The notes under the pieces were generated by a model, which was not told where the DNA came from, made no database searches, and worked only from the letters and a program-made list of their open reading frames with translations. From Beroe forskalii (lineage: Eukaryota; Ctenophora; Nuda; Beroida; Beroidae), in the NCBI GenBank assembly GCA_011033025.1, contig WFMF01000061.1:124001-188000 (forward strand): a stretch of 64,000 nt of DNA. The letters are read 5' to 3'. A program made the position numbers and the translations under genes. How positions within the stretch are numbered: position 1 is the first letter of the stretch; each line of letters opens with the position of its first letter. Shown here one piece after another: positions 13,801-36,800 of the stretch.

Positions 13801-16800
13801 TGAGACTAAACGTGAACGATCATGAGCTTTTGTTTGTAAAACTCAAATAACTATGAGTTTAGAAAAGCTAGGAAATTAGTTTTACTTAAAAGAGCTGGAT
13901 AATTGCTATTCTAATAACAGTTCCTTTTAACTAGAACTATGACATAATATTTTTCAAAAATTTATTTAAATAGAAAAAAGGCGTACAATCATTCGAAATT
14001 AAAATGAATTTACCTGTGTGAAAGGCAGTTTTAATGAAAGACTGAAAGGCAGCTTTAATATAAATTTTTGAATTCATCATATTATACAGCTAACGAAAAG
14101 AATAGCAGCAAAAAATAAAATATTTTTGATGTATTAAACAGACGTAGTAGGCAAATTAGCAATGAAAAAGATTTGCTTCGTGAAAATTTCTTAATTTTTC
14201 TCGTGAGGTTTTTATACGGTGTTTTTATATTATTTATTTATTTTGGTTTTATTTATTATTATTTAAATATCATTATTATCTATATTTATTATTATTCATA
14301 TATTAAACTATAAATAATTAATTGCTTGCTTCGTAATGACGGCAAATAAAACTTGAATATATACAGGACAATCAATGACTGTAAATAAAGGTAATCAGAA
14401 GAATTCAAATGTGTTGCCAGGAAAAGTGCCAACATTTTTACGATGCCAACATGCCCATAGGTTCACCATTGCCCATGTGAGGTTTCGAAGCAAAAATGGG
14501 GCCCAAAACTCGAAATCTTAACCAAAGTGATCTTTTTCCAAAGTGATCTTCATGTAGTTGAGCCTAATTTTCAAACAACGATTGATATTTTTGCATAGTT
14601 TTCAGTTTTGCATCATGGGAATCTAGTTATTTCAATAAAGAAAAACATTAGGGGCATTAGATAAACAAATGAATATTATAATTGATCATATGGAAAGGTT
14701 AAAAGTTTTGAAACTTTGCTTTTCGCGTAGCCAGGGGGATAGGGGAACGCCACACATGCAGCTGACTCCCCTTTCCAGACAGCGATTGTGAAAATCTCAC
14801 TTAGATTAGAGCTTTGCTTAAACTTTTAGATTAGAGCCAGGCAAAATATGAAATAAGCCATTCAATTTTGCTTAGATTAGAACTTTGCTCAGGCTATTAG
14901 ATTAGAACCAGGCAAAATAAGCCATTCAACAGGTTTGGGATGTAACTGCCCCTTTTCCGAAAACCTGAGTACACCCCTGTTTTAAACTACTGAACCCTCC
15001 TTCCCAGGGATACGTGGACGAGGCGATGGAGATGTACCAGGAACTACACAAGTGGGACGACGCACTGCGCGTCGCGGAGAACAAGAACCACCCGGAGCTA
15101 GAGTTACTGAGGAGGAACTACTTCCAGTGGCTTACAGATACTCAACAAGAGGAGAAGGCAGGAGAGGTGAGTGTGGAAGGTGGTGTCAATAGTGGTGTCA
15201 AAAGAGGTGAGTGTGGGAGGTGGTGTCAATAGTGGTGTCAACAGAGGTGAGTGTGGGAGGTGGTGTCAAGGGTGGTGTCAACAGAGGTGAGTGTGGGAGG
15301 TGGTGTCACCAGAGGTGAGTGTGGGAGGTGGTCTCAAAGGAGGTGTCAACAGAGGTGAGTGTGAAGGGTGGTGTTAACAGAGGTGAGTGTGAAGGGTGGT
15401 GTCAATAGTGGTGTCAATAGTGGTGTCAACAGAGGTGGGTGTGAACGGTGGTGTCAACAGAGGTGAGTGTGGGAGGTGGTGTCAATAGTGGTGTCAACAG
15501 AGGTGAGGGTGGGAGGTGGTGTCAACAGAGGTGAGTGTGGGAGCTGGTGGTGTCAAGGTAGTAGTACCAATAGTTGTCGTGTCAATACTGGGTGACAAGG
15601 GTGAGCGTGCGGAAGTCTCAATGCTTAAATGTTGAAACATCTTAAAAAGTATTTAGACATGGTCCCCTTTCAAACAGACCGACTCATTCTCTGAATCATC
15701 TCCTGACTTTTCCCCTGTTCAGCTGTTAGAGAAGGAAGGCGACTACATGAGCGCACTACAGATGTACATCAAGGCTGGGTTACCTGCTAAAGCAGCTAGG
15801 ATAGCCATATCACACGATCAGATAGCATCTCAGACAGACATCATTGAGCGGATAGCTGCTCAGCTAGTCAAAGGAGGTCTTCACGAGAGGGTGAGTGTGT
15901 CGTTTGGATCACTCATCAGTGTCCTGTTCTGCCATATTCGTATGGTAAAATTACAAGTCTGAAAAATATGTACTGGTAACACTGAAGGGAAAACTGCGGT
16001 GAAAACTTATAAAAACATTCATAAAATTTCCCGTAACTCAGGCAGGCGATCTATTTGAGAAGATAAACCAGAACCAGAGAGCACTGGAGTGCTTCAGACA
16101 AGGCAAAGCGTTCCGTCGCGCTGTGGAGCTTGCTAGATTCGTGTTCCCTAAAGAGGTCATATCGTTGGAGGAAGAGTGGGGCGATTTCCTTGCGAGTCAG
16201 CAGCAGATGGATGCTGCCATCAGTCATTACATTGAAGCTGGGTAAGTCAATGGCATCTAAGTCATTGAAGCTGGGTAAGTCAATGGCATCTGGGTAATTG
16301 CAGGCCCGTTGAGGTTAAAGATTCATGAAATGCCGAAATGTACTGCTGAAGCCTTAAGTTCGACAAGACAGAGTTCCTTTTACTCTTTTAGTTACCATTT
16401 AGTCATTAGCATCATCGTCATTTTAACAGTAGAATTATTGCTTGCTGAAATAGCATATTCCAACCGTGAAATGCATGAAATGCATGTTTGTTTGAGTCAA
16501 GAAACATTTCAGGGGCGGTCACATATCTAAATGTTATTTTGCGTAACGCACGGCGACAAAATGATGGTACAACGAACTGTTGTTACACCGTAGTGCACTG
16601 TTAATTTTGCGCGCGCAACGCGCCACGGACCGTTTTTAGCAACTGATCAACAATGAACATGAGATAAATCATGGGAATGGCGATCGTCGTTCATCATTAC
16701 GAAATGTTAAATGTGGATGTTGGTAACGCCTCAAAGCAGTTGATTGACCAGGCCACTTGAACCGCTGACCTGGTTTATGTGCTTCTATGTATATTGTATA

Positions 16801-19800
16801 GGACTGTACAACGAGGATCATTGCTCAAAATGAAAAAAAGGTTCGAATTCCTTACAGAAGCCCCCAGCCTTCCAGTAAGGCTGATACTCTGTTAGGCCCA
16901 AAAAGTTCAATAGGTATAATTTCAATAACCGTATTGAGGTGGCAAATTTGTTTAATTAGGATGTTTGGCTTCTGGGATCTGCTGCCCCCAGACCCCTACC
17001 TTGAATGAAATCGAATTATGAAATGGGGACTGAAATAGGCCCCTGGAAGCCTGAATTATTATTATTATTATTATTATTATTAAATCAAGATAATATATAA
17101 CAAAATTACACATTATCAACCTCTTAATGTAGGTGTAACATAGGATGTCGTCGGCCCTCAAATGCTTCTCGACGGCCCTGGCTAAGGGTTGTCATTTGCC
17201 CGCAAGCACCTCACGCATGCAGGTAGTTCCAAGTAGCTAAGTAGAACAGTGATCTTGAAGAGCTGCCTCCCTTCTGTCAGCAGATTTTTCACCAACAGAA
17301 TCTCACTAATTGGTCAGTGGTGTAGTGGTATCGGTTTGGATCAAACCTTGTAAACCTTGGATCACAAGAACAAAAGATACTGCGACACTGCGTTCGAATC
17401 CCGGCCAGCGCCACTGAGCTTAGGGTGAGAGACTTATCTGGAGCCTATGCAGCCCTACCATTCACTCAGCCAAGCGTACAGGAAACTGTGTGGGAAGGGT
17501 TAATGAGGAGCTGCCGATTGCAGCGAAATCTCGGGCGAATAAAGTATGATTACACTTCCTTAACCGTCACTGGCTTGATTACTTGGATCTTTCGAATCCA
17601 GTCATTGGCTGTTACAGCTGTTGGAACAGAAATAAAAATCTTCGAGATAAAAATTATGATATTATGCCTTCCAGGAAGTCGATCAAAGCGATTGAAGCTG
17701 CGATCCAGTCGCGACAGTGGAGCAAAGTGATCCAGATAGTGGAGGCTCAGGAAGAGTCTATCGCTAAGAAGTACTACAAAGTCATTGCTGATCACTACAG
17801 TCACGTGGGGGAATACGCTCATGCGGAAAGGTTTATACAATCACATTAATAGATTAATTCCTTAATCCCCACTTTAAGCACATGCGGAAAGGTTTACAAT
17901 CAATTCAATCGGAAATAGGACGAGTACAATGGTTACGAACATCTTTATTCTTCAGTTGTAGCAATTAAAACGTCGTGTTCTGGTCACAATTTAAGATGTT
18001 CGTTACCGTTCTACTCGTCGTATTTGTAATTAATTAATTGTAATTAAATAAAAGCTGTAGCAAAAGGTAAAAGCTGGTGAGGTTTCCCCTCTAAAGCTCT
18101 AAAGCAGGAGCTATAAGTAGAACTTAAAGGTTAAAGGGATTACAATGATTAATTCGAACTTCAATCGTTCGAACTTCTGTCATGATTGGTGACAGAAGTC
18201 AGAACTGCTCATTCTGTTCGAACTTCCGTCGTTTCTGACTTCCGTCGTTCGAACTTTCGCCGTACAATCCGCATCGTATTTTTTCCTGTTCCCAATCGCG
18301 TTTTTGTTTTACAAAAAGGCATTGAGAAAAGGTTAGCAGAGATCGTGTTTTGTGAGGGTTGTGTGTATACTACCTTTATGCGTAGTGTTAAATCTGAAAT
18401 AGGTGGTGGTGCTGCGCGCGACCAAATTTGGTATGTCGTATGTCACTTTTTCGATCATTTTCATTCATTCAACTGCTCCTTTATAATATCACTCGCGCCA
18501 ATGTAGCTTGGTGTAGTGGCATCCTGTACAGTGTGCATTGCAGCTAGCTTACAGTTATTCCGGTTCAATGCTATGTTCATCCTTATGTTGAAACTTGGAA
18601 ATTGATTCTTTTTGAAAAACTTCATTCTTCAATTTCATCAAACTTTTCAATGATAAGAGGTGCGTGAATGTCTATCGATTTTCTTGGAATTCTCCAACAA
18701 ATTGTGATTGGGTTTCAATCAATGAATCAAATCATCATTTTTCTTCAAGCAGGAGATAATTGACAATGAGCAATTTGAGTTCGATCAATGATGATTGACC
18801 TTAGCAATAGCAATTTCGCTGAGGAAAGTAAGAGATGAAAATTTGTCTCGGTATCTCTTGAATTTACGATATCTGAACCTTCAATCTTGGCTAGTGATCC
18901 TTCTCTTTATCATCAAATTGGCACAGTTGATCATAAAATCACAAATATCGACGCTCAGGAAGAACGTTGCATTTAGTTGAATATCAATAGTCGCCACAAG
19001 AGATCCTCGATCAAGTTTTTATTTAAAAGTTTAAAGTGAGCTCTCGCCTCTGACAGTGGTATCTGAGCAACATAAAATCAAACTGCAGAAACTTGTAAGG
19101 GCAGAAAATTTGATTTCGTATGACATTATTATTTTCATCAATGGATACACTTGCTAACAGCTAATGCGCAACGCTTGATGTTGGTACGAGACGTCGCACA
19201 AAACTCACAAGGAAACAACCAGGAATGAATGCGTACGCGCGCAAACAGAACATGGCAGGTGTTCATGAATTTTGCGCGCGCAGTAAAATGCACGTGCGAC
19301 TTGTGATCACGTACGAACGACCTTAAGTTTCATGACATTAAAGCGCTCGCCGTGGTTAAAATAAACGAGCGCAATTAGTGTTTTCAGTTTATACTTACGA
19401 ATGGAATATTTGTAAAATTGATTCAGTGATGTTGATAAATGGTAGGAAGTACGATGGGACACTTGATAGATCAAGCGTTTTATCGTCAACTCATCCTGTC
19501 AGTAAGCGAGACGGACAATGTTCGATTATCAAATGACAGCTTGTTTTATTACCAGCCCCGGGGAACAGGAAATTAAGCGCCTGCATAAGGGAACAACGGG
19601 CACAAGAAATGTGCCGGCAGGCGCAATTCTTGTTTTAAATACGTATGTAACTTGCTCTCCACTCAGGTTCTACACGCGAGGTGAGACCCCGGAGCACGCC
19701 GTGGAGATGTACATCTCCCAGAACGAGTGGGAAGCTGCCCACAAGGTCGCCATGACATGCATGAAGCCTGAGGAGATCGCTGTGCTCTACATTACCCACG

Positions 19801-22800
19801 CTCAAGACATGGAGGCTAAGGGGCGGTACAGGGAAGCGGAGAAGTGAGTTGGAGAGAGAGACCGAGCTCTTAAATCATTCATCTGTTTTACTCAAGTTAA
19901 TGTACTCAAATATGTGACCTGGTCATTCATCATTTCATATGCGAATATCTCAGTTATATCACGTGACTGTTGGGTCCTTCATCATTTTATCAAAGCGCCA
20001 TTTGTTGGCCAATGGGAAGGTCATAGATAACTTGTTGGGCGTTGGCTTTCTGGCCAACCTAACAGTCCTTGATTATGACTTTATAAGACAATTAACTAAA
20101 TATACCACTTCCATATCTCCTCTTCACATTATGTTACACCCTCTCCCGACACATGAAACACTGACATAACTAACATTAGCACTGAATTGACCCTTTCCCA
20201 GGCTGTATCTGACTGTCAAGGAGCCTGACCTTGCTATCAACATGTACAAGAAACTCCGCCAATACGACAGCATGATCCGCCTGGTGTCGATCTACCACAA
20301 TGATCTTCTCAACGATACACACCTCCATCTGGGCAAGGTTTGTGTGTGAACGAAATGACAGGGAAAAGATGGGCTGATACCCATCTTTTACTATACCATA
20401 CCACGATCTCACTTCTGTACAGGAATTGAAAATAAATGTTCAGAATGACGGAGCAGAAACGGGTTGCATCTCAAACATTACACTTTCTATTTCGATATAA
20501 AACCATACACAGCCACAGAAAAGAAAACTTCCTTGTGTTTGGAATATGACCCCTCTTAACCTGCAGGAGTTGGAGGGAGAGGGTCAGTACAAAGGAGCAG
20601 AGAAGCACTACATTGAGGGAGGGGACTGGAAGAGCTGTGTCAACATGTACCGGGTTGCAGATATGTGGGACGATGCTTTCAGGGTTGCTAAGCAACAGGG
20701 CGGTGCCAACGCTGCTAAGCAGGTAGTAGCCTCATGCACCTTTATTGATAAGCCATCAGATTATGCACATCCCCCTACATTTTAGGTGAAAGTTTGAGTC
20801 TCTAACTCCCACTCTTAGTTCCCCTCTAACTCCCTCTTTAACCCTAGCCCTAACCCTGAATACCCGCTACCTGCCTTCTGAATCCCACTCTCACTACCCC
20901 TCTCTAACCCTCTCTACCTCCTCCTCTAACCCCCTCTTATTCCCCACTAACATCCCTCTCACTCCCCATCTAACACCCCATCTAACTCTCCCTATAACTC
21001 CCCCTCTGACACCCTCTCGCACCCATTCTAACCCCCTCTAACTCCCCAGGTAGCCTACGTGTGGAGTAAGACCCTGGGTGGGGACTCTGCTATCAGACTG
21101 CTGGTAAAACTGGGACTTCTCGAACAGTGCATTGACTACGCAGCTGAAACTGGGTTAGTTACTTGTTCAGTGATTTGTTATAGACCTGCTGTTTTCTGAT
21201 AGTGATTCGATGAAATCATTCGGAGGACGGAGATGAATGGTCTAAACTGGAATCATAATCATGAATTATCTTTTGTGTGGTAGAATCAAGGGTTTTTATG
21301 GTTTTCCCTCAGAGCGTTTCCCTACGCGTTTGAGTTGTGCAAGCACCCGACTATGGCAGACAAGTTACCTGATATCTACCTGAAACACGCCATGCACCTT
21401 GAGGACGAAGGTAAGTCAATAAATCAGCTGTCCCTGGTGATTTTTCTTTTTTTCGGAAAGTAAAGGGCTTGTATTATTGCAATGATTGCAACTGTGGTAT
21501 GTCATTGATAACTAGTAATATCATTTTCCAGCTTTTCGCAATTCGTTATCTCAATGCTGCACTTTGTTTCAGGTAAGTTTGGTGAAGCAGAAGCAAGCTT
21601 CATCAAGGCTAGCAAACCGAAGGAAGCAGTGCTTATGTACGTACACTGTCAGGACTGGGATTCCGCGCAGAGGATTGCGGAGGCGCACGATCCGTCCTCT
21701 GTACCTGACGTTCTGGTGGGGCAGGTAAAGGCCGCTTTTAGAGCTTATTTTAGGTTTACCGACGATGTAAAACGCATATGTGTGCGGATCGCTCAATTAC
21801 CGGAGGGCTCGAAAAATACGCGCGGATTTCATGTTTGTGTTTCAACTACATTTTCGATTCTATCGAAAGCACTCAATATCAGTTTATAGCGCCCTCTGTC
21901 AATCGAGCGATCTTGCACAAATATGCGTAGAAGATAAGTCAACATTCTTGACTCTTGTAACCTATCAGTTGCTTAGTCCCTACATTTTATCTCAATGAAT
22001 CGCTTTCTACACACCCTCTCCCAATGTAGGTTCGATATGATATTGGTAGATGCAGAATTACATATAATACCTTGATTAGGTTTTTTTTAATCTTCCGATG
22101 CCCTAGGCGCGTGTTGCATTCGACAACAAGGAGTTCAGTAAAGCTGAAACGTTCCTGCTGCGAGCGGAGCGTCCCGAACTCGCCGTCAAGTTCTACAAGG
22201 ACGGCGGACGCTGGGAGGACGCCATGCGGATCACTCAGGAGTACATCCCCCACAAACTGCAGGAGATACAGGATCAGTATGAGAGCTTCCTCGCAACCAG
22301 CACGGGCGGGTGAGACAAGGAGCTGAAGGGGGGAGGGAGTGAGGGATGGGAATTTGGGGGAATAGGGAGTGAGGGATGGGAATGGGGGGATTAGTGAGTG
22401 AGAGATGGGAATGGGGGGATTAGGGAGTGAGGGATGGGAATTAGGAACGAGAGATTGGAGAGAGATTGGAGAGATAAAGTGGGAGGAGGCGGGGAGTTTA
22501 GCGAACATAGGGAATGAGACATGAGCGTAGGTGTGAAGGATCGTGTTCAGTATGACATTTAGGTACTGCTTTTATGATAGTATGGTGAACTAAAGAAGCA
22601 CAGGGGGCAGATTTCCAGGTTATAGAGAGGTCTAAAGTTCCCTCAGGTAACTGAGTACTGTAGAAGGTGTTTTGTTTTAATGTTCTAACATTTTAAACAG
22701 GACTCAGCACTAAATGAGACACTAGAGCCTCTAAAGATAAACCGACCAATTGATTGAGTAGGTAGGTAGCCACTTATATCAGGTCTGGAGGTGAGATAAG

Positions 22801-25800
22801 GGACTCTATAATTGGACATTGGCTGATGCTTATAATTGGAAAAGTAGGTTAAACAGTGGGGAGGAAGAATGACAAGCTGTTTACAGTAACTAGTGAGGAG
22901 TCAATACGAATGATAGTTTGAGAACAGGGAAAGTGATCGGATTGCAAGTAGTATGAGATGAAATGACCTTGTTGCATTCCTTAGTAGGTATGTGGGTGGA
23001 AGTTATCTCTCCCAGGGACCACTTACAATGACTTCTCACAGTCTGGTTTCTGAGACAAGGTCATAGGTACACATATCTCCCTCCTTTGCTAGTTATTTGC
23101 CAGCGCAGTGTCACCAACGTATTGGCAGGTCACTGTCACACTAGTTATTTGCCAGTGAACTGTTAACTTCCAGCAACAGGGATGATCTCCTGACTCCAGC
23201 CAAGACTTGGGAAGCCAACGGAGACTACAGCCGAGCTATTGAGGCCTACCTCAAGATGACCTTAATGCAGACAACAGACTACGCCCTGTTGGAGGAGGTA
23301 CCTGTACTTGTTTTGTGTGGTGGAGGAGGTACCTTCTTGTGTTTTGTGGTGGAGGAGGTACCAATACTTGTGTTTTGTGGTGACATGGTGTAACAGACGA
23401 GTACATGTTCTGAGAAACTTGGATATGTCATTTGTTTGGGGCATTAGTATGTCATTGTTTGTCTACCGTGTCAGTGCCGTGTCTGTGTGCGTTAGTCGTG
23501 TTTTTGTTCATTTACAGCTCAAAACGTAGGTTTTAGACCGAATCCATTACAGCATTACTTTCTATAAAAATCACAAAACTTTTAAAATTTAAGCTTGTTC
23601 TCACTCCAATCACAACCTTCAGGTTTGGTACAAAGCGTTGGAGCTGGCGTTGAAGTTTGTTCCAATGAAGGCAAACAGTGTCGGTGATACGGTAGCCCAG
23701 CGATTGGCGGAAATTTCAAGATTTGAAAGCGTAAGATACTATCTGAGATAATATATCCCTAAAACTCACAAACTTTTCACCCGTGCTATAACGTGTGAAA
23801 TGTCTCGTCACCCAACTTGCTACTCCTTCACTCTACTACTACTATTACTGTTTCCACGTGTCTTGCTATAGAAACTTCTTTCAGATATGCCGAACACATT
23901 TCAAAAAGTCTGGGCAAGCAACGTGATTTTAAAGTTTTAAAAGCCTCCGACTGCAAACTTTTAAAATATTGCACACAAAAATAGATATATTGCTGCTAAC
24001 TTGCTGCCGTCCGATTCTATCAATACCTGCGAATTCTTCGCTCAATGGGCGTGAAGGAATAACTCTTCACTGTGTCAATCACGTGACATAAGAATAAGAA
24101 TGATATAGATGCAGTCTAATTTAGTAATGTCAGACCAGGAGTAAGGAAATTGATAAATTGGAGACCCCAAAGATTAAATTAAAAAAGCCCGTTAAAATGG
24201 AAAGTCCCAGACTTCTACTAGAAGATGGATTGAAATGACATATTACATAATATCACGTGATGTATCTCAGGCGGGGGAAGCTTATCTGTCAGTAGAGAAC
24301 TACAAGGCTTGCATTGACATGTTTATCAGAGGAGATAAGTGGGACAGAGCCCGGGCTGTAGCCAGGGAACACGCTCCTCAGTTCGAACAGAAAGTGGAAG
24401 AAGCGTGAGTGTGGCGAGGGTCACAATACAAGCTTTGATAAATGAATTAAAAGGAAAACTAATGCTGAACCGATAGATTAATGAAATTATTGAAGTTTTT
24501 GTACCTTATCATCTACGTTTCGAACCTTATCATCCAAGTTTTTCACCTTATCATTTAAGTTTTGTACCTTATCATCCAGTAGAAATCGACTGTCTACCTC
24601 GTGTTATCGGTATTCCGCCTTTGACAGGTATGTTGAGAGTCTGAAGAAACGAGGCAAGGCTGAAGAGTTAGCCAGTGTGGATGTGATTGCTGGGTTGGAC
24701 CTCCTAGCAAACAGGGGCCAGTGGGCAAAGTGTCTGCAGACAGCACAGCAAGAGGTCAGTGAGTGGGTGATAACAGTAACCTGACGAAATGTAATCTTCG
24801 AAAGTTCCTAATCCTGATTTTAAACTTTATCAGGAGTTCCAAGCACACTTGAACCTTCCTAGGTCCTTGATCCCTAAATTATCCCATGCATTTCCCTCTT
24901 CACCCCTAACCCTTTACGCCCTCTTTCTCCCCAGGGTAAGCAAGTTCTAAACAAGTATGTAGCCCTTTACGCTGCCCAGCTCCTCCAAGACGGACAGGCC
25001 ATCCAGGCTCTGGGTGTGTTCACTCAGTACGGCGTCTCTGAGAACCCGGCCAACTTCAATCTGTACAGGTGGGTTTTTTATGCAATAACTCGTCCCCTTT
25101 CGGGGATGGATGGCAACTCTCAATTCCACAGAGAGTTTCCCTGGGACCCACCTGGTACAGGTGAGTTGTCGCACTTCATTTAAATTGAACTTCAGAGAAA
25201 TTGCACTTTTAGTCCAATTCTTAACACCGATAGTGCAGATAGTGCTTTCAGTTGATCCTTTTCAAACCGATCCGATGAATTTAAGAATTTATGTTGTATT
25301 GTTTCAATTTCAAATGAATGGGACAATCCAAGAACCTTCTTTGTTTCAGACGGCTATGTAACGACTTGTTTGTCCTTGAATCCTTCTCCTCTCTCACTGC
25401 CTACAAAACCTGGTCAGCTCTACGAGATGTCATGGCCGAGCTGGTGCGTTATTAATATTACACTTATTTAAAACTTATTTAAATTCAATTTGTTTATCAT
25501 TGCTTTATTCCTCAGATTTGACTTTTTTCAAATTCTGTATTTTGTTATTATCACATACTTCCCCTGAACATACAGTACTCCTTCTGGAATTTGTAGACTT
25601 GTATAATTACCCCAGACCTTGTTTCAGGTTGATAAGCTGCCTGATAACAAGGAATTCAACTCCCTACTCCAGTGCTCCCATCTCCTAGCTGTTAGAACCA
25701 GCTCAGCCGGACACAAGCAACTCTTTGAGATCGGAACTAAGTGTGCTGTAAGAGACATTTCAAGTTTCAAAGATACGCTGATTCAGCTTTTTTCAACTGT

Positions 25801-26928
25801 TAAATTGCAGTTCGGACTTTCTCGCTATGCCCAAGTTTAATATCCCACTCCTTTCAAGTTTCACACCGTTGTGACTGATTCTCCTCCACCATCCCCAGCA
25901 TCCCTTCTACCTCTACTCTTTGATTGATTTACCAGTACTTCCACCATTACATCCCCTCTACATCCCTTCTCCTCAGGTTTCCCTGCTCCGTTACACCAAC
26001 TACCTGCTTCCGGACAAGGCATTCTACGAGGCTGGCATCGCGTGCCGTAACATCGGCTGGAACAACATGGCATTTGTCTTCCTCAACCGCTTCCTGGACA
26101 TCTACGATGCCATTGAGGATGGCAGCACTGACATGCTGGACCACAGCGACTTCGCGGATACTGACGTGCCGTACGATATCATCCTACCAGAGGATCATTC
26201 TATTCCGGTGAGTGATTGCTGGGAAATCGTAGGTGTGAAAAATAGCTGTAAAGCTGGTCATCATAGTTACCAATGTTTCCATGGATGATGGACCTATGGT
26301 AACGGTTACCATGGTAACGTAACAGATAACGGCCACATGGTTACACACCACTTATTGTTTTATTGTTTACCATGGTAACTCCCCTGATCGCAGGAAGAAG
26401 AAAGGGAGGAGGCTAAAGAGTGGGTGCTGGCAGTCTCCATGGATCAGAGGGTACAACAAGTGCTGAACACGGACGAGAGAGGGTGCTACGAGGCCTCGTT
26501 ACTCAACGTCCACAACAACGTCCGCTCTCAGCAATGCATCCTGACAGGTATGATGTGCTTCCTCTGTCTTGGAAATCGGGGGATTCTATCCCAATCCTAT
26601 TCGGATTTCGTAGAACTACAAAATGTTGATGTTACACTTTATATTAGTTTCTACTAAAAAATGTCTAGCATTGAACCTTTCCTGAGGCAAGAAACTGAAA
26701 GACAAAATTCGATCAATATTCATTCCATTTTCCCTATCTCCAACAGGTTACCCAGTCCTGCGAGGTGAGATCGCTTTTAAGAACAGCGGTAACGTTGCCA
26801 ACAAGGACGATTGGAATGTGTACGTAATGGCACGGAAGGTTTCCCACAGTGTGGAGTGCCAGGATGTCCTGACTTACTTGCAGCAGTTCGCTGGGGCGCC
26901 CGCCAACCCCTCCTACTCATTCCAGTAG
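937..26928 (+). CDS. IFT172: Intraflagellar transport protein 172 (31 coding exons, one frameshift in exon 3)
   Basis: IFT172 is the large peripheral subunit of the IFT-B train that moves cargo along cilia and acts at the tip turnaround. The order is an N-terminal pair of WD40 propellers (residues about 1-580), then a long TPR/helical solenoid. Similarity to vertebrate IFT172 is continuous, from the starting [10 protein letters not shown] to the final PSYSFQ. Exons: 937-1421, 1688-1878, 2143-2374, 2668-2835, 2994-3173, 3826-3979, 4197-4375, 4747-4890, 11312-11406, 11617-11878, 15008-15166, 15723-15890, 16042-16241, 17675-17830, 19667-19843, 20202-20337, 20567-20722, 21050-21153, 21313-21410, 21573-21724, 22107-22309, 23174-23297, 23623-23730, 24271-24404, 24628-24754, 24935-25068, 25350-25443, 25628-25747, 25977-26207, 26394-26547, 26747-26928. 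All introns are GT-AG and phases join cleanly. An in-frame TGA at 913-915 supports the start. The exons total 5207 bp, one short of a multiple of 3, which matches the single lost base seen in exon 3. The result is about 1735 residues; human IFT172 is 1749. Confidence 0.97.
2234..2255 (+). other. IFT172: Single-base loss and premature stop in IFT172 exon 3
   Basis: The conserved path [15 protein letters not shown] needs a GG followed by GC. The sequence has CTGGCAGC, one G short, so the frame reads into TGA at 2253-2255. The frame after the gap remains conserved to the exon end. The summed exon length confirms a net loss of one base. Confidence 0.85.
7997..8030 (-). other. Second frameshift in the nested GPCR
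   Basis: The middle frame ends TVETSVV and stop. The downstream frame, read as [19 protein letters not shown], is already open across the same bases. A single lost base near 8005-8030 would join them. Confidence 0.7.
8262..8353 (-). other. First frameshift in the nested GPCR
   Basis: The upstream frame ([21 protein letters not shown]) and the downstream frame ([20 protein letters not shown]) together make one LDLa module, but they lie in different frames. The switch is in a purine run containing six consecutive A (minus strand, about 8268-8285). One extra base, or two missing, would explain it. Confidence 0.75.
9510..9532 (-). mobile_element. Helitron-like 3' terminus (candidate)
   Basis: On the minus strand a perfect GC hairpin, GCAGGCCC/GGGCCTGC with a 3-nt loop (9514-9532), is followed at once by CTAG and a T. 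Helitrons end in a short GC hairpin near CTRR and insert between A and T (family knowledge). The usual few-base gap between hairpin and CTRR is missing here, and I did not find a matching 5' TC end. A partial copy of the motif (GCAGGCCCGTTG) lies near 16302 in intron 13. Confidence 0.35.
10563..10984. repeat. 211-bp tandem duplication of a foldback element
   Basis: Two copies (10563-10773 and 10774-10984) differ at only one position that I found (ACAAGTC versus ACATGTC). Each copy contains nested inverted repeats: GTGACCGTATACC pairs with GGTATACGGTCAC, CAACTTACA with TGTAAGTTG, and GATAATG with CATTATC. A diverged piece (GACCGTATAACC) occurs near 11180. This looks like a MITE or foldback element duplicated recently. 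Confidence 0.75.
11312..11878 (+). CDS. IFT172: IFT172 exons 9-10: propeller-to-solenoid junction
   Basis: These exons encode residues 579-697. Exon 9 (11312-11406) holds the conserved [19 protein letters not shown]. Exon 10 (11617-11878) begins the helical solenoid with [19 protein letters not shown] and [13 protein letters not shown]. Exon 9 sits after the 6.4-kb intron 8 that carries the nested GPCR. Exon 10 precedes the 3.1-kb intron 10 that carries the nested secreted-protein gene. Phase joins exactly: exon 9 ends in AG and exon 10 starts with A, making AGA (Arg). Confidence 0.95.
12947..13517 (-). pseudogene. Small secreted protein with GTEP repeats, one frameshift, nested in IFT172 intron 10
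   Basis: The start at 13517-13515 ([19 protein letters not shown]) gives a classic signal peptide cleaved near residue 19-20. Four Gly-Thr-Glu-Pro units follow (residues 24-40), then charged amphipathic helices. The first frame runs to 13068 (149 residues). A second frame continues to 12947 (stop), reading [19 protein letters not shown] and ending ERDMPM. The two frames hold related units: [13 protein letters not shown] in the first and [13 protein letters not shown] in the second. One repeat protein of about 190 residues was therefore probably split by an indel near 13115-13125. It is intronless and opposite to IFT172. I do not recognise the family. A secreted helical or mucus-type protein is all that can be said. 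Confidence 0.6.
13630..14799. other. AT-rich part of IFT172 intron 10
   Basis: This stretch has long A/T runs and TTATT-rich tracts near 14225-14300. I see no gene. Confidence 0.5.
14795..14931. repeat. Diverged tandem duplication before IFT172 exon 11
   Basis: Two copies of a block of about 70 bp (CTTAGATTAGAGCTTTGCT ... AGCCAGGCAAAATA ... AAGCCATTCAA) end 76 bp before the exon 11 acceptor. Confidence 0.7.
15008..20722 (+). CDS. IFT172: IFT172 exons 11-17: first TPR solenoid block
   Basis: These exons encode residues 698-1081. Each exon carries helical-hairpin repeats of the TPR type: [97 protein letters not shown] and [18 protein letters not shown]. The exon and intron borders around exons 11, 13 and 14 are tandemly duplicated (see the repeat entries). 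Intron 14 (1.8 kb) holds a tRNA-like sequence and no gene I can support. Confidence 0.94.
15160..15560 (+). repeat. Minisatellite built from the exon 11 5' splice site
   Basis: The authentic donor GAGAG|GTGAGTGTGG at 15162-15175 is followed by a tandem array of roughly 28-42 bp units, each with GGTGGTGTC and AGAGGTGAGTGTG. I count about eight further intact AGAGGTGAGT copies before 15560. The array begins exactly at the exon border. Confidence 0.85.
16231..16291 (+). repeat. Duplicated 5' splice junction, IFT172 exon 13
   Basis: The 28 bp at 16231-16258 (ATTGAAGCTGG|GTAAGTC and on) recur identically at 16264-16291. The repeat carries both the exon tail and the donor. Use of the second donor would add 33 bases containing an in-frame TAA. 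Confidence 0.85.
17055..17082. repeat. ATT microsatellite
   Basis: An uninterrupted run of ATT trinucleotides lies in IFT172 intron 13. Confidence 0.9.
17311..17417 (+). repeat. tRNA-like sequence, possible tRNA-derived SINE
   Basis: TAGTGGTATCGG resembles a pol III A box and GTTCGAATCCC (17392-17402) a B box. CAGTGGTG (17315-17322) can pair with CGCCACTG (17409-17416) as an acceptor-like stem. The A-to-B distance is too long and the anticodon arm is not standard, so a tRNA-derived repeat is more likely than a working tRNA. A similar but weaker pair (TGTAGTGGCATCC ... GGTTCAATGC) is near 18512-18575. Confidence 0.4.
17817..17896 (+). repeat. Duplicated 5' splice junction, IFT172 exon 14
   Basis: CATGCGGAAAG|GTTTA at 17820-17835 recurs at 17881-17896, 61 bp downstream. 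The real splice site is the first, by phase. Confidence 0.75.
17831..19666 (+). other. IFT172 intron 14
   Basis: This 1.8-kb intron includes a block near 18145-18265 with repeated TTCGAACTTCxGTC units in both orientations. The open frame over 18186-18506 is made of those units and looks non-coding. I see nothing else. Confidence 0.5.
20783..21049 (+). repeat. CTAACTCCC-rich repeat tract before IFT172 exon 18
   Basis: More than a dozen imperfect CTAAC(T/C)CCC units fill the intron up to its CCCCAG acceptor. The tract acts as a greatly extended polypyrimidine and branch-point-like region. Confidence 0.75.
21050..24404 (+). CDS. IFT172: IFT172 exons 18-24: second TPR solenoid block
   Basis: These exons encode residues 1082-1388. 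Recognisable conserved stretches include [60 protein letters not shown] and the region around [14 protein letters not shown]. Exon 22 (23174-23297) has an insert-like [14 protein letters not shown] and a triplicated 5' splice site. Exon 23 is the least conserved exon of this block, but its frame and splice sites are clean. Exon 24 reads [23 protein letters not shown]. Confidence 0.93.
22310..23173 (+). other. IFT172 intron 21 with a purine-rich repeat
   Basis: 22319-22470 carries repeated units of AGGGAGTGAGGGATGGGAAT. The remainder shows no gene. Confidence 0.6.
23288..23390 (+). repeat. Triplicated 5' splice junction, IFT172 exon 22
   Basis: GGAGGAG|GTACC of exon 22 (23291-23302) is repeated at 23322-23333 and 23351-23362, within units of about 30 bp rich in TTGTGTTTTGTGGT. 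Confidence 0.85.
24488..24585 (+). repeat. Tandem repeat before IFT172 exon 25
   Basis: Four imperfect units of about 25 bp (TTTTGTACCTTATCATC(C/T)A-like) lie 43-140 bp upstream of the exon 25 acceptor. Confidence 0.75.
24628..26928 (+). CDS. IFT172: IFT172 exons 25-31: C-terminal region
   Basis: These exons encode residues 1389-1735. Landmarks are [83 protein letters not shown] and [18 protein letters not shown]. The terminal exon reads [11 protein letters not shown]...[11 protein letters not shown] and ends PSYSFQ, then TAG at 26926-26928. The C-terminal part corresponds to the small folded domain at the end of IFT172, described as U-box-like in other species (family knowledge). No key deletion is visible. 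Confidence 0.95.
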
Positions 26929-26957
26929 GGGCTACGATGGTATAGCTTGGGGACGAT

Positions 26958-26963
26958 AATAAA
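26958..26963 (+). terminator. Poly(A) signal of IFT172
   Basis: A canonical AATAAA lies 30 bp after the IFT172 stop codon, implying a very short 3' UTR. Confidence 0.7.
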
Positions 26964-27529
26964 CGATATTCGTTGTACAAATTACTGACGGAACGAGTCA
27001 GTTTCAGATTCAACATAGCAACTCCTTATTAAAAACAAAAAGAATATCAATATTGTTTTAAATAGGCTAAAAACTCAAATGTAAATAATGAATAACCATT
27101 TCTATTTTCTAATAGTGAGCATGACATTGCCATTTAATTTAACTTTTAAGCTATAGAATTAGAAATGAAAAGCTTGCAATGCAGTTTAGTACTTGCTATG
27201 ATTGGATCAGAGCTTTTAATTCAATTTCAATACATTTGCAAACTTTGAAGCTGAATGAAACGCGCAATATAATTTATATTTATTAGTATTTCCATTTTCC
27301 CAATCAATTATATTTAATTGCGATGTAAATTGTAAACAATTTGAATTAGGCACTTAAATTTTAGGCACTTAAAATTAAATTCATTGGCCTTGGATCACAT
27401 AATCTATTTCAACTTCAAACAGTTCCAGTTTAAAATTTTCTGTGTATAGCCGTTTTATAGCCTTGCCATGCCATGCCTTACCTATACCACTGCTTTTTAC
27501 GACTGCGACATACGTGTTTATCAATATGT

Positions 27530-28060: not shown

Positions 28061-28417
28061 AAACAGGGATATAATACGTGTTTAGCAACCTACGAGGTTG
28101 AACCCGGCCCTCCATCTTGCAAATGAAATTGATGTCTTATTGTCTATTTGTATTGAAGGAATCATTGCATTCTTCATTCATATTCATATTATTCAATGGA
28201 TTATCTTAATCAGATTCTTAATACAGCATTAAAATAGCTTTACATATAAATTGCTAATTTAAGACATCATAAAGGTATGTTTGACAAATGTAGATACAGG
28301 TTTGATGGGGTAGATTTCCATATGCAATTTCATAAATATTGACTCCATTAATTAGGTGACTGAGCTTATAAAGTTATAAACGGATAAACCATAAACTAGA
28401 TGAGGATTTTCCTTTTG

Positions 28418-28465
28418 ATACATTTTGATGCACCCAATAGTCAATACATTTTGATGCACCCAATA
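28418..28465. repeat. 22-bp tandem duplication
   Basis: The unit ATACATTTTGATGCACCCAA occurs twice with a 4-bp spacer. Confidence 0.8.
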
Positions 28466-29591
28466 CATTTGCATTTTGCAAGAAAGTTTGTAGCTGAAAC
28501 TGGTTAAGTATTCTGAGATTTATCTCAGTTCCCTAGGTACCTCTGATAAAAATGAATCTCTCCCTTTGCAGATATTCGCAGGTATTTGAACGATGCAATC
28601 TTTTGAGCATTTTTAAATTCAGAATCATGTTAGTGTATTTTCAAAAATTTTGTATTGTTTTGTAACTTCTTCATATTGTAACTTATTCACAAAGATAATA
28701 TAAAGAATTGTTTGTTAAGAAATAAATCTGCAGGACTCCTAGCTCTTGACTATAAAGATGACTGTATTAGTGTATTTGTTCTACAAAGAAGACTCCTATC
28801 TCTGTTTATACTTTTATACAAGGTACCTACTTAGTGGCCAAGTTATATTGCAACATAGGTAGAGATAGGTGGTATGCTGGCATCATGAATCATCAGTCTA
28901 ATGCAATTGCAGTCATAGCAGCTCATGCATGTACCAGTTGATCAAATTGTTATCTTAAAACGTGTTCTTTTGGCCTTTCCACTTCCAGGTGATTTACTAA
29001 CTTACTAAGAGTTAATGCTAGAGCACTTTGTGAAATTGAATTTCAACACACTGGTAAGAGTTAATCTAGAGATTTTTGTAGAGAAACACACTTTGTATAA
29101 ACCAACATTTGACAGTACAATAGCTGCTTTGACTGAATGGAACCTCTCAGCTTCAGTTTCTGTTTGAAATGAGCTCCCTAGGCTAGTCTCATATTACAAT
29201 ATTGATGGTGGCTTAAGTTTTTTTGTTGAACAGTGTAACTTCTCCATACTTTGATTATCTCAAACATTAAAATAGCTCAGTCTGATTCTTACCTTCCAAA
29301 TGGAAAATCCCCTCAGTTAGGGATTGTTCACATATTACCTACTCACCTAGGAGGAGGGAGGGGGTTTCCGAATGATTACATTACATGTTATTGTAACAAA
29401 TACAACTACTGTAAACTTGATAACAAGGGGGAGGGGGTTGAAGTCGGCCAAAAATTGAGGGAAACAAAATTTTAGGGAAACAAAATTTATTTTTTATCAA
29501 CATTTTCAATACATAATAAAAATCAAATCAAATCAATGTAATATGTGAACAATCCCTTACACCATTTCAAATCTCCTCACTTTCAACCGAG

Positions 29592-29791
29592 ACTTTGATA
29601 GGTTTCTACTTTTCCAAAACCTATTGCTATATATTGCAATTTATTGCAAATAACCAAACAATTATGAATGGTATATCACAGTAGTTGTTGGGGTATACTC
29701 ATACAACTACTTTGATATACCTACCAGTCATAATTATTTGGTGATTTGCAATATAGCAATAGGTTTTGGAAAAGTAGATGCCTATCAAAGT
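29592..29791. repeat. 200-bp near-perfect foldback (MITE or hairpin)
   Basis: The left arm (29592-29688) and right arm (29703-29791) are reverse complements with few mismatches, around a 14-nt loop. The ends read ACTTTGATAGG and CCTATCAAAGT. I found no coding sequence and no clear target-site duplication. Confidence 0.8.
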
Positions 29792-32699
29792 ATCAAGCAG
29801 ATACACTGGTCGACAATATTTTAAGATGAGTCCAGTGTATAGGCAATATCAATCAAATATCAACCTCAGCTTTCAACGTATTAAACTTGATATAGCTTTA
29901 ATTTACCAAAGAATCAATAATAATTAATAATTAATAGGTAGGTACTCTGCAGAAGCTAATAAGCAGGGGGCCCGAAATAAGCATACCAGGCTGGGGGATT
30001 TGAGAATTTCTTGCAAACGGGTGGGTTGCCAAATAAGTGGGTGGGCCTGGATTTCTGATGAAGCGAAATAACTCCTTAATTGTTTCTGTCCATGAAGTTA
30101 CTGAAATTTCACTGATTTATGCTAGATCAGACCATCTCTTTGCCAAGTTTACAAGCAAATTACCAAAAAATAAAGAACAAAGAACAAAAAATGCCCATTT
30201 CTGAATAAATTTTGCACGAAATGTGATTAAAATTTTCAAAATTGCTTAAACAGGGGGGGGGGGGGTCTTTTTTAAGTGTACCTGGCCTGGACTTTCTCCT
30301 TGAAAATTGCTATCGTCTCCCCCCCCCACTTATTAGCTACTACAGAGTACCTACATGGTATATTTATATGAATATTTGTAAAATTGTTTGAGTTAAATAA
30401 AATTTTGTCTTTTCCTTAATTTTGTCTTTTCCTTACATATTTTGAAAATTTGAAATTTGGTATTCACCAAATTTGAAATCTTGATCAGGCGGCATTTTAG
30501 CTCGTACATAAACCTGCTTTTTATAAGGTACCAGTATGTCACCCTGTTACTTTGGAGTTTGGAGCTGCCACCTTAACATTACAAAAGTGGGAGGTCGCAC
30601 TCGAAAAATTAAGTTCAAGATTTATTCATTTTGGCCAAAACAACTTTGTTAGAGCGGCAACTTTGAAACTGCTTTTTAATGTGCTACTTTGAATCATCCT
30701 ATTTAATACAAATTTGGTGAATATGACACAAATGTTTGGCATAGAAGTATATTTGCATGCAGTCACATACTGCACAAAAAGTACCCAGGCCTAGCATAAT
30801 ATGTCATACCTCAAAAGGTTTCAACATCAGGGACATATGCATTATGTGTATGTGTTTATGTGGTACTATTTGAGTTTTATTCCAGTAATAAAGCTTTATT
30901 AATAGCAAGCCTGACAAAAATTTGAAAAAAATCTATCTAAGTTCATGTGATGAATGTATTTTAATGATCCACATCATAATGTAGGGCCCCTGAATGGAAG
31001 GCTTATTAATTAGAAAATTTGAAAATTGGATATATAGTAACCCTCATTCATCCACTTCTGGCAGCCGCATCTCAGTTTTCAATTCCTACTGAGCGAAAAC
31101 TTATATATTGTGTCCCAGGTCCCTTTATTAACATATTAACAAGGCAAAATATCTTGAAAATATCATTCTTGTAACTTTAGAACTTCGTACCTTATAGGCT
31201 TATAGAATAAAGGAAACATCAAAAGTTTTATACATAATATTATATAGGAGTTCATAGCTTATCTGACAAACTCTGCTTTCATTTTTCAATTCATACTGAC
31301 AGCACCTTTGCATTCTCAGGTTTTGTATCATGCTTTTCAGATAGGTAGGTATTGGTTTGTTCTCTAATGTTAGGAATCTAAGTTTGGTTTATGAGGAAAA
31401 TATGCATCTCCAACGATCCTTGCTATAATAGCAAACCATTTTCCTTTGGACTTTATTTCTGGATATTGGAATCAGGAAAGAATAGCTAGGTACAGTGTAC
31501 GTCTATTGGAGAACCCATTTTATGCAATTACTGAATAATTTATGTTTGGAGCCATATTCATCATCATACTATTGACTGTAATTTTATGTTCTTACTGGTT
31601 TATGCAGCAAAATGTGGAGACTGGCGACTAGACAGCTAACCGAGTGGAACCATGTGACCTAGCCAGTAAACATATTGTTTTTAATATCGGCGTATGTTTT
31701 GTTTAATTGGTGGCCAGTACTGTTGTAAGTTGTAGTTAAGGACATGATCGATACATTACCTATCTTCATTTGCTGGTCCTCTAACTGGGAAATAGATGAT
31801 GTTCCTAATTGACCTCGGCCCTCGCAAGACTTTTCAGGAAACTTGAAATGTTGCGTTGTTTAGCCTTTCAAACATTTCTATTTGATTAATTTCAGTTGGT
31901 TTATGCTTTTATGCAGTTAATTGAATAAAGCCCATCAACATTATGGCTTATAAACACTCAGAAAATAAGGTCATAATGAAAGTAGGCATATAGCCTTATT
32001 TAACACGCAATGTTTTGATGAAAATTGAGGCGATCCATCGTTATAGATGAGTGCTGCTCCTTTTTAATTAATCAGAAAATGTCAGGGCTTATTTTACGAT
32101 GGTTGTCGTTAGAGAATTATCCAATTTAATCACAAACCCCATCATATTCCACCTTATAGCAGCCTTTGTCTTTTTAATTAACCATTGTATTACATCGTCG
32201 TTTAGTTTTTTAATAACCACCCTGCAGTCTCCCGTGTATCAACTGGTAATCAATCTGCTTTGATGATTAATTTATCATGAGGCAACCTAATTACAACTCA
32301 ATTACATGAGACAATGCGACTTAAATCACATGGACACTAGTAAATAAAGGGATACCACTTTTCAGCTTTTAAATTAACCCAACTAATGTGTTATTGCATT
32401 TCGTTCATTGCTGATTATAACCGATTTCTTTTCCCGGTAACTCCATGCTGCAGCCCTGACCAATGGAGTAACTACCATCGAGTAACCATTTTGCTATTTT
32501 CTACTTCTGAGCTCGTCCGCAGAACATATTTCGGTATTATAGTCCAATGCTCGTCATTTGCAGTGATTTTCCGAAATATAAAACAACGCTTATTTGTATA
32601 TTATATAACTAAAATTATATTCCTCGTTACATGTAATATGAATATATTATATATATTAGTTAAAGTATGGAATATATTTCTTATATAGGACACTGGGTT

Positions 32700-33047
32700 T
32701 GTGTATAAAATTTAGGTCTGTCTACGGCTGTACTCAAGACGGATAGTAAATCAGAGCGCACTCCTCGAGGGGAGGTTAGAGCGAGCTTTGTACCACCTAC
32801 TCTGTTCTTTACCTCGTGCCTTTGAGGGAGAAAGAGGAGGAAGGGAATCCTACGTTTTGAATCCTATAGTTGTTTTGCTTGATAGCTAGTATTCTATAAT
32901 ATACTTGGCTGATAAGACCACGGATACGTATCTTCCTCTCCTCCTTCTTCTTCTCCTTGTCGGCTCATGACCAAACTTCGAGACTGTAGAACGACTAGCA
33001 ACTTGTCTTCTTCGTGACACTGGTGAAGCTGGTCGCGTAACACACTG
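32700..33047 (+). promoter_or_regulatory. Possible promoter and 5' UTR exon of the TALE homeobox gene
   Basis: A TATAAAA at about 32704 is followed by sequence more GC-rich than its flanks. A good donor, ACACTG|GTGAGT, lies at 33047/33048, 767 bp before the first coding exon. No long frame is present. This is inference from position and motif only. Confidence 0.3.
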
Positions 33048-33814
33048 GTGAGTTGCGTGCAAGGCATTAGTGGAACTCTATTACTTTATAATATGAGCGT
33101 GTGTGTGTCTATTAGTTGGTATCCCTTTACCTGTCGAAGGATATGGCCTTGCATATATCTGAACTAATGATGCTTTGAAAGTACTACGTCGTTATTGTAC
33201 ATCCTTCAATTAACAAGCCTCCCCGGCTTTTCCCTCTTGCCACTTCTTGTTCTCTTGCTTTTGTCAGACACCCACTTTTTCTTTTCAAATTCTCAAAGGT
33301 GGGAGTTATTAACGGCAGTTTACCCCTGCTGCATCAAGACCTTCTTCGCTAGAATAGGCTGTGAGTTTTGAATTGTTTCTTAAGGTTTTTTGTTTTGCGT
33401 TCTTTATTTTGTCAAACATTAGCCGTATAAAATGAACTGCAGATGCTGCTTAGTAGATGCTTTCATAACAGAATGTTATATATTTTCTTATTTTTAAAAA
33501 TCTCAAAGGAATAAACCTATCTTATGAAATGAAATAGTTTGCCTATTATTATGCCATTTGTAAAAATTCTTTATTGCATTTGCATTATTATTTGTAACTT
33601 GTTGCGATTACAAATTGATCATTAAGATATGAATGATATCCATGATTTGGCCTGTAATGAAATATAAAATAATCCCGTTAATCGGTTTAGTAAAATTAGC
33701 GTTTTTGATACATGAATAAGCTTTTATTTTCTTACTTTTATGGGTGGAGAAACTCATTCCATCATTGAAATTACCTATTCGTATAAAAAGTAATCTCCTC
33801 TCACCCGCTTATAG

Positions 33815-36800
33815 ATGCAATGGCAATAATGCAGTTTCAAGAGCAGGAAAACATACCTCTGAACTGTTTTAAAAGGAAGATAGAAGAGATCGAGGACAGG
33901 ACTACCTACGGTTCTCGGAAGGTAGGTGGTTCAGGCTCGTCCGGCTCCGGCAGGGGGCGCGTAATTTGCCCTTGAAAATACTGCCTAAAACCCACACACG
34001 CATCAAGTAACTCACTGATGATGATCATTGTAACCCCTGATGTTGGGTTCCAGTGACCACATGATCATTGCAACCCCTGATGTTGGGTTCCAGTGACCAC
34101 CTGATCATTGTAACCCCTGATGTTGGGTTCCAGTGACCACTCCTGTGTGTGTGTCGTTACGCTGCAATGATTCGTAACAAAGTCGCCTGATAAATACCCC
34201 GGATACGGGTATTATCGGCTGGGTCATGTGATGGCCATGAGATGGGAAGTGCGGTGTTATTAGAGAGGTATACGTTTTAATAACGAAATCAGTCCACTTC
34301 ATGTGTTCATGTAGATTGCGAATCAACCGATATTTTAGGAATGGAATCCTGACCTAAAGTATGGGAGATGATTTAGTGATGTTGTGGCAACCTTTACCAT
34401 GCCAATTACTTGTATTCATGGTTTGATGCTAACGTTTCCGGAAGTATTCTCAATGAAGTCACGTATGAGTTACGATCTATCTCCGACTAAAGTCGAAGTT
34501 ATGTTATAGGATTACAAAATTCAGCTGGATACAGGAGTATCGGGTTTAATAATGAAATAAAACTTTCAAAAACATCAATAACGTTTTGAATTAAAAAAAA
34601 AAAAAAACTGCACCATTTTAATCCAACAAATACACCACTTTTCAATGATTGAAAACCCACTAGGGGCACCACTAAGGGCTTCAGAAAAGAAAAGTAAACA
34701 TAAATCGAAACCAAGTTAAAATGCACCTACTTATTCAGAAAGTGTGTATGTTTCAATGTTTCATCCAGCTATTTCCCTGATTCACAACCCCTCCTTCACA
34801 ACCCCTCTAACTCCCTATTTCCCTACTTCACAACCCCTCTAACTCCCTGTTTCCCTATTTCAGGAGCTGGAGCAGCAGGCGGCGGATGAGCCGGTTGCAG
34901 GGGGCACTGAGGAAGAGGCTGGTGCTGGGAGTTCCACCCCTGCCACAACCCAGCCTCAGAGCGCCTTCAAAGCGTGAGTAAAGTGGCTTTTATAGCGCCT
35001 CAAAGCGTGAGTAAAGTGGCTTTTATAGTTCAGACAACGTGATAAAAGCTATCGTGTTATGCAGACGTTTTTACAAGTCCCAGAGGGAATGATTTCTCGC
35101 AATCACAGCATGAAAGTTGAGATACACTGGATTTATGGCTTTTATGAACATAGAGTTGGTGTAGCTGGTGTCTGAGTTTTTAATTTCTGTGACTTGCCCG
35201 CCGTCAATATGACTTGTGTACCATTATCCGTATAATAGGTATTCTAATGGTTTGGAAATTCTACAGTGAGGTGTGACACTTTCAAATGTCTCGTTTTGTA
35301 AATACTAAATTATATTTAGCTAGAGCTCCAATCAATTTGACGTAACGTGAATAAACTGGGTGTGGTGATAAACCACCACTGGAAGCTGCTACTTTACAGG
35401 TCTTATTAATGGGGCAATCAGTGATGTGCCAGAAGATTTGAGCAAATTCAAATGTCACTTAATAATTAAACTGACTGTAAATTGTCAATTCTCATTGATT
35501 TTGAGTGACAGTGGCAGGTTTTCATTATTAACCTTAGCTTTGGGTGCGAGATTCTTCTTGAATAATTTGGTTAATATTCCTTCAGTATAAAATATAAATT
35601 AAGCTAGCTCAAAATAATACTTTGTCCCATTAAATTTCCTTTCCACCATTTAAAATATTAAATGTTGCCAAATGTTTTTATTTAGCACCCCATACGTAAA
35701 CTTGTAAAGCTTTTTACTCCAATCAAAGCATTATTACAAATAAACTTCGCCAATCGCCATCGATTAGGGTCAAAACATTTATTTGTTTCTGTCTAACAAA
35801 AGTCACTTGTTTCCGTTACCTTTTGTCTCATTTTTCGAGATAAAAGTAAGTTTCCCCTTCATGTGCAGTCATTGTAAACAATGTACACTCAGCTCAGTCA
35901 CGCCTGATAAATAGGCGTTCAGAAACATGTCTACTCACCACTATATTCCCTGATAATCCCCCCACCTTTGCTCGCCTGCTACTAGGTCGCGACCTGTGAC
36001 CAGTCTGCTACAGTTCACTCCCTTTTCTCCTTTATTGTGTGAACTGCTACAGTTCACCCTCCTCCCCTCCTTTAGTGCTACAGTTCACTCCCTCCATAGG
36101 TGCCCCGGCAGAAAGGAGCCACCAGGAAAACTCTCAGGCAACCCCATGGACCTGCTCATGAACCAAGTCAAAAACATCGGTAAGAGCTGACTATATATTT
36201 TAGTTCAATATTCCACAGTTTCTTTGTTTTGTTAAGAGTTGTTTTATATGGTCTCTGAGGGTCTCATGGTTTTATCTCTGTACGTGTCATTTGACACGAA
36301 GATATAAAAGGGACAAGCATAATATCTGTAGCTTTAGAATATCAGAACATCGCCCTGACTGTCTCCCAGCCAATCCGTGTACACAATATAAATATTTGAG
36401 TCGTTACTATTGTTGCCACCTAACTTTGACAGAAAGGTCAGTACGACCTCTAGGTATGTGTGTATTATATTGAGAGAGTGTTTTCCTGGCACACAATGTA
36501 ACGGCAGAAACAAAGACCCAGGCAGGTTTAGGAATATGTCAGATGTTCAATGGTTTTACTAGCACTGGATATAATGTAGGAGTTGTTGCTGTAGTATTTG
36601 GTGTTTGTCATTTCGCAATTGAGTTTTTGTGTGTTTTTAATTAGGTGGCAGTTTGTCAAGTTAATTGATAGGTCAAGAGGGGAGGCTTGAAAGGCACACA
36701 TTCCAAAGCAGAGGTTAATTTGAAAAGGGAGTATACTGTTATAGTTATAGTTATAGGTCAAGGAGAGGTTGATTTATGTCAATGAAGGGCTGATCTCAAG

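What the first reader, a model, noticed from the sequence alone, without database searches (positions are those of the whole stretch)
15160..35026. Recurrent tandem duplication of whole 5' splice junctions
At five donors (IFT172 exons 11, 13, 14 and 22; TALE exon 2), exon-tail bases plus the GT donor are copied 28-61 bp downstream, once or many times. Five of 37 donors is far more than random intronic repeats should give, because each copy spans the exon border itself. A local process (replication slippage, or retained duplications that are neutral because the first donor wins) may be creating decoy splice sites. I know of no standard element that does this.
Basis: partly seen in the sequence, partly recalled or inferred. 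Interest (0 to 1): 0.8.

Follow-up and report, generated by a model that had tools for sequence, protein, structure and literature searches.

The report
Splice-junction minisatellites in a comb-jelly genome
In what is almost certainly a comb jelly, short tandem duplications often run across the end of an exon and copy its splice signal into the intron; this is a known oddity of lancelet genes, now seen in a distant animal lineage, where it looks harmless and somewhat commoner than chance.

Summary
At exon 11 an 11-copy array starts only 4 bases inside the exon. The 216-Mb genome is very probably a ctenophore: 515 copies of a spliced-leader-like motif, innexins, no Hox-like homeodomain. The same structures occur elsewhere in it, for example about 53 copies of a 22-bp unit at one donor, and in a kinase and in dynein genes. 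Tandem arrays cover 11.6% of the sample, so coincidences are expected. Even so, 9 of 84 donors carry a junction-spanning copy against 3.1-3.5 expected from intron-internal positions; acceptors 1 of 84. Without IFT172 the excess is weak (6 of 54, p 0.013-0.019). Copies show no preferential conservation of the donor motif; conserved proteins need the first donor. Best reading: near-neutral 'mirage' minisatellites, known from amphioxus (PMC3087553, PMC3902484), tolerated because the first junction stays intact. New are lineage, scale and donor bias, not the kind.

The parts
937..26928 (+). IFT172 gene, 31 exons, host of four of the five donor duplications
   Evidence: spliced model; exon 3 should end at 2374 by protein continuity (donor checked); IFT172 match of exons 11-31
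15163..15549 (+). exon 11 donor array: 11 copies of AGAG|GTGRGKG..., units 28/40/52 bp; starts 4 bases before the exon end (15166)
16230..16291 (+). exon 13 donor (GT at 16242) duplicated once, 33 bp downstream; use of the second copy gives a stop
17820..17896 (+). exon 14 donor (GT at 17831): CATGCGGAAAG|GTTTA repeated 61 bp downstream; use of the second copy gives frameshift and stop
23290..23382 (+). exon 22 donor (GT at 23298), three copies of a 29-31 bp unit; the third copy (60 nt on) would add 20 residues in frame without a stop
   Evidence: the TALE label itself was not tested
22333..22463 (+). G-rich array starting about 24 nt after the exon 21 donor; near but not spanning it
20888..21014 (+). 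pyrimidine-rich array ending about 36 nt before exon 18; not spanning the acceptor
34789..34862 (+). pyrimidine-rich array ending at the acceptor of TALE exon 2; not spanning into the exon

Best explanation
These are minisatellites of the 'mirage' type in a ctenophore genome that is rich in tandem repeats. A short tandem duplication (unit about 22-84 bp) starts a few bases inside an exon and ends in the intron. Duplicating exon-tail plus intron-head gives tail-head-tail-head, which leaves the first exon-intron junction untouched, so the event is close to neutral, whereas the same event inside an exon would mostly break the reading frame. Later slippage or unequal exchange may expand the two copies into arrays of up to about 53, each with a decoy donor. 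The first donor is the one that joins the conserved protein. Shown: the copies, their spread in the genome, the donor excess over intron-internal positions under an edge rule, the lack of acceptor excess, and no preferential conservation of the donor motif. Inferred: origin by slippage or template switching, first-donor use in RNA, and the reason for the donor excess.
For: Five window cases. Elsewhere (19 loci taken at arbitrary places, two dynein loci): L015 donors 896 (37 bp) and 2970 (33 bp, about 7 copies) and the acceptor of exon 2809 (37 bp, 46.6 copies) in one predicted gene; L017, 52.8 copies of CCACTCCAAG|GTATGGCTAATG; L013 donor 4572; L025(-), a kinase gene with a cyclic-nucleotide domain, 22-bp array at donor 3710; L029(-) dynein donors 648 (32 bp) and 4758 (67 bp), L028(-) dynein donor 4843 (43-44 bp). 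Control: 9 of 84 donors vs 3.1-3.5 expected, acceptors 1 of 84 vs 3.6. Over the 110 exons' sites, 11 donors and 2 acceptors (0 of 30 IFT172; 2 of 80 others) pass the edge rule. TRF start edges: 7 in 2,100 bases from -25 to 0 of donors vs 13 in 35,422 bases at 100-1000 into introns. Interior of IFT172 exons: 0.07% of positions. Donor or acceptor bases -3..+6 within five arrays: lower than the rest in two, equal in one, slightly higher in two. Joined at the first donor, DNA alone, kinase and dynein read through in frame; with the second copy they do not. At IFT172 exons 11, 13, 14, 22 and TALE, 8 of the 9 later copies tested give a stop or frameshift. Amphioxus precedent with splicing reported undisturbed.
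Against: If tolerance alone were the cause, donors should match, not exceed, intron-internal positions; they exceed them 2.5-3-fold, so part of the excess is unexplained. By the bare rule, without the edge condition, donors show no excess. About two fifths of the 67 predicted exons may be false (null 29), and the predicted exons I tried from L013, L015 and L017 match no Pfam family. ADH3 shows 0 of 6 checked donors. No RNA data, no second individual.
Confidence: 0.7

Rival explanations
1. Pure coincidence: intronic minisatellites cover over a tenth of this genome and some start at donors; no special link to splice sites.
For: Array coverage 11.6%, 150 arrays in 252 kb; array units as a class are not clearly enriched for donor-like motifs (score 9 or more: 10 of 120 vs shuffled mean 6.0, maximum 12). 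The bare rule hits 14% of noncoding GTs and gives donors no excess.
Against: With array edges and matched intron-internal positions donors exceed controls (9 of 84 vs 3.1-3.5, p 0.0004-0.002) and array starts peak at donors.
Confidence: 0.22
2. A mutational process aimed at 5' splice sites (for example co-transcriptional structure or nicking at the exon-intron junction) creates the duplications.
For: Donor excess but no acceptor excess; array starts peak within 25 nt upstream of donors; the exon share of the unit is short, mean 0.35 of the period in 13 hand-entered cases (Kolmogorov-Smirnov p 0.026 against uniform).
Against: Small numbers; the exon share may be shortened by coding constraint and by the match rule; donor-like motifs do not mark arrays in general.
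Confidence: 0.2
3. Selected function: extra donor copies recruit U1 snRNP or guard weak donors.
For: Many copies keep a good donor.
Against: Duplicated donors are not weaker (13 vs 98, p 0.48); donor bases in copies are not preferentially kept (no significance test made).
Confidence: 0.05
4. Remnants of intron birth by tandem duplication of exonic AGGT segments (Rogers model, as cited in PMC3087553).
For: Mirage arrays were proposed as a route to new introns (PMC3087553, passages).
Against: No IFT172 acceptor carries an upstream copy (0 of 30); in L015 the donor-side and acceptor-side arrays of one predicted intron have different units.
Confidence: 0.05

Closest known systems
'Mirage' minisatellites of amphioxus (Adh3, troponin C, globins BflGb6 and BflGb9; PGBD5 likened to them)
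   Same: tandem repeats that span exon-intron boundaries, units of tens of bp in Adh3 (10-72 bp), copies mostly retain AG/GT signals, both 5' and 3' boundaries affected, splicing reported as undisturbed there (passages of PMC3087553; one passage of PMC3902484)
   Different: different host lineage (ctenophore-like genome); seen at several loci sampled and mostly at donors; up to about 53 copies; instability and RNA not tested; this genome's ADH3 has none at 6 checked donors
Intron gain by tandem genomic duplication (PMC4974935: search listing and start of abstract only)
   Same: tandem duplication that copies a splice signal
   Different: there a new intron arises; here the IFT172 acceptors do not carry a copy

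Membership tests
mirage minisatellite | tandem repeat spans an exon-intron boundary | tested here: met
   exon 11 only by 4 bases
mirage minisatellite | copies keep AG/GT splice signals | tested here: met
mirage minisatellite | both 5' and 3' boundaries can be affected | tested here: met
   acceptor arrays at L015 exon 2809, L029(-) exon 441 and, with 46 exon bases, L009(-) exon 7844; none at the 30 IFT172 acceptors
mirage minisatellite | regular splicing is not disturbed | not testable with these tools
   no RNA; protein continuity fits first-donor use
mirage minisatellite | length instability between haplotypes or somatic cells | not tested
   one assembly only
intron gain by tandem duplication | donor side and acceptor side of the intron share the duplicated segment | tested here: not met
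   0 of 30 IFT172 acceptors carry an upstream copy

The most novel reading that the evidence does not exclude
Ctenophores have a mutational process that favours 5' splice sites and seeds minisatellites there, so that roughly one donor in ten carries extra copies of itself, convergently with cephalochordates.
Probability: 0.25. Interest if true: 0.72.

Novelty: new member of a known kind. Interest (0 to 1): 0.5.

Why it matters
Splice sites in tandem are a classic test of how the spliceosome picks a donor. Here nature offers junctions with many near-identical donors in a row, up to about 53 at one predicted exon and about 22 in a kinase gene, where protein continuity says the first must be used. 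The structures also bear on how introns grow and are born, and suggest that mirages are not a lancelet peculiarity.

Tried and rejected
Unit-motif test: arrays as a class are not significantly enriched for donor or acceptor motifs over dinucleotide shuffles, apart from one acceptor threshold just above the shuffled maximum (score 6: 17 of 120 vs maximum 16), so arrays are not splice-derived in general. Weak-donor hypothesis: no difference. Preferential conservation of decoy donors: none seen. Amphioxus as host: rejected; the best match to an Antp homeodomain is 44% identical and all 18 listed lie at 31-56%. Bare junction rule without the edge condition: useless as a test, since 11-14% of noncoding positions pass. 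A dispersed family: the subunit GGTGGTGTCAA of the exon 11 array matches 30 other places at 66-83%; the four I read (L002, L003, L005, L007) were minisatellite blocks, so exon 11 might be an invaded rather than a purely local array; not settled. tRNA-like stretch near 17311: ARAGORN finds none. The frame reading of copies used wrong offsets and was replaced; for exon 22 the offset was wrong again and holds. The COX1 family search (PF00115) did not complete, so there is no mitochondrial check of the species.
Full report
Observation. IFT172 lies at 937-26928 on the plus strand with 31 exons; exons 11-31 match solved IFT172 with E 5.2e-245. Exon 3 carries a one-base frameshift near 2250 and should end at 2374 by protein continuity, two bases beyond the model; that donor has no copy downstream. 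None of the 30 IFT172 acceptors has an upstream copy.

Which organism. The window lies in contig C703 of a 216-Mb, 1134-contig genome. All 18 listed matches to an Antp homeodomain are 31-56% identical, the best by E-value 44%; six matches to an innexin exist; and the motif CTTTATACAATTAAATTTGAGGT occurs 515 times with up to two mismatches (259 + 256) against 0 for the pattern read backwards. In L011 three copies end a longer stretch that resembles the Hormiphora spliced leader by eye (leader in PMC8527503, passages; the same paper counts the M. leidyi leader motif 491 times and gives 13% tandem repeats for Hormiphora, passages). That Hox genes are missing and innexins present in ctenophores is recalled. 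Conclusion: a ctenophore, species not fixed; not an amphioxus.

Is it more than chance. Tandem arrays are everywhere: 150 arrays, 11.6% of 252 kb (window plus 19 loci). By the bare rule (a copy of score 12 or more downstream) donors are not above background: IFT172 3 of 30 against 4.2% of intron positions and 9.2% of intron GTs, random loci 5 of 67 against 12.3% of positions. That rule counts every position inside an array; the fair question is how often an array begins just upstream of the site, so an edge rule was set after seeing this (5-25 bases upstream).

The exon finder was trained on IFT172, recovered 27 of 29 internal IFT172 exons (its own training data), and gave 84 exons in 19 loci at its first threshold against 22 in reversed sequence, and 67 against 29 after retraining; so perhaps two fifths of the 67 are false. 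In two dynein loci 13 of 18 predicted exons were kept; the five dropped, two of them high-scoring, did not look dynein-like by eye, and none of the five had a copy at its donor. Together with IFT172 this gives 110 donors, of which 11 pass the edge rule; of the matching 110 acceptors 2 pass, a third, in L009, having too long an exon share.

Acceptors: 1 of 84 against 3.6. In that call the L015 donor was moved by hand from 2977 to 2970, because the array and the reading frame point to 2970. Exon 11 and TALE are not among the 9. TRF start edges fall 7 times in 2,100 bases just upstream of donors (exon 11 included) and 13 times in 35,422 bases deeper than 100 into introns; array ends lie 9 times within 50 bases before an acceptor but only one enters the exon. 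Edge counts in short introns are partly geometric, so I rely. ADH3 donors checked: 0 of 6.

Elsewhere in the genome. L017 has a predicted exon ending CCACTCCAAG followed by about 53 copies of the same 22-bp unit. L015 shows a donor duplication, a 46-copy acceptor array and a 7-copy donor array in one predicted gene. The exons of L013, L015 and L017 that I tried match no Pfam family, so these genes rest on the exon finder. L025(-) encodes a kinase with a cyclic-nucleotide-binding domain and has a 22-bp array at donor 3710. L028(-) and L029(-) encode dynein heavy chains (L029); one L029 exon has arrays on both sides.

How it works. Copying exon tail plus intron head leaves the first junction intact. 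Using a later donor gives a stop or a frameshift at the four copies tested at exon 11, at exons 13 and 14, at TALE and at the second copy of exon 22; the third copy of exon 22 would add 20 residues in frame. Joined at the first donor, from DNA alone, the kinase reads ...LFVT-R-LYKTFKD... and the dynein ...PDIQ-R-QLPRE... without a stop; the second copy breaks both. Splice bases of the copies vary about as much as the rest of the unit in five arrays, four at donors and one at an acceptor, and duplicated donors are as strong as others (13 vs 98). This fits neutral decoys behind a first donor that wins, with an unexplained excess at donors. First-donor use rests on protein continuity, not on RNA.

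What is known. Minisatellite-like duplications of exon-intron boundaries, called mirages, are described in amphioxus Adh3, troponin C and globins, and PGBD5 is likened to them, with splicing said to be undisturbed (passages of PMC3087553; one passage of PMC3902484; the original Adh3 paper was not seen). In the rows listed by my searches for mirages, duplicated splice sites and ctenophore tandem repeats I saw no report of such arrays outside cephalochordates. Two of these lists were cut (20 of 34; 15 of 234), the library holds open-licence PubMed Central papers only, and I judged most rows by title.

Verdict. Real, recurrent, of a known kind, in a new lineage, with a moderate donor bias that needs an annotated genome to settle.

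Noticed in passing
window 2143-2374: IFT172 exon 3 carries a one-base frameshift near 2250 in an otherwise open gene; more likely an assembly error than a dead gene.
   Followed up: partly
window 5640-8920 (minus) and 13050-13520 (minus): Two minus-strand genes or gene remnants lie inside IFT172 introns: a long stretch that looks by eye like an LDL-receptor-repeat 7TM receptor (8 stops in its best frame over the stretch read), and a small secreted-protein-like frame with a 12-bp in-frame repeat. Nested genes are reported for Hormiphora (PMC8527503, passages).
   Followed up: partly
window 10563-10987: A 211-bp unit in two tandem copies, 99% alike, inside an IFT172 intron.
   Followed up: no
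L011 292, 2848, 4028; 515 places in the genome: Spliced-leader-like genes ending AATTTGAG|GTAAG, in clusters.
   Followed up: partly
G000:C1024:1425825, C534:80512, C26:9713: Dynein heavy-chain matches in open frames of 3715, 3010 and 1583 residues, beside others broken into short exons: intron-poor dyneins, retrocopies or foreign DNA.
   Followed up: no
L002, L003, L005, L007: A dispersed family of GGTGTCAA-type minisatellite blocks; L005 and L007 are 89% alike over 1650 bases that reach beyond the array. Both lie on contigs of about 20 kb, so they may be alleles or copies of one mobile block. The family shares a subunit with the exon 11 array.
   Followed up: partly
window 20888-21014 and 34789-34862: Pyrimidine-rich arrays that stop at or shortly before acceptors; the same clustering appears in the sampled introns.
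   Followed up: partly
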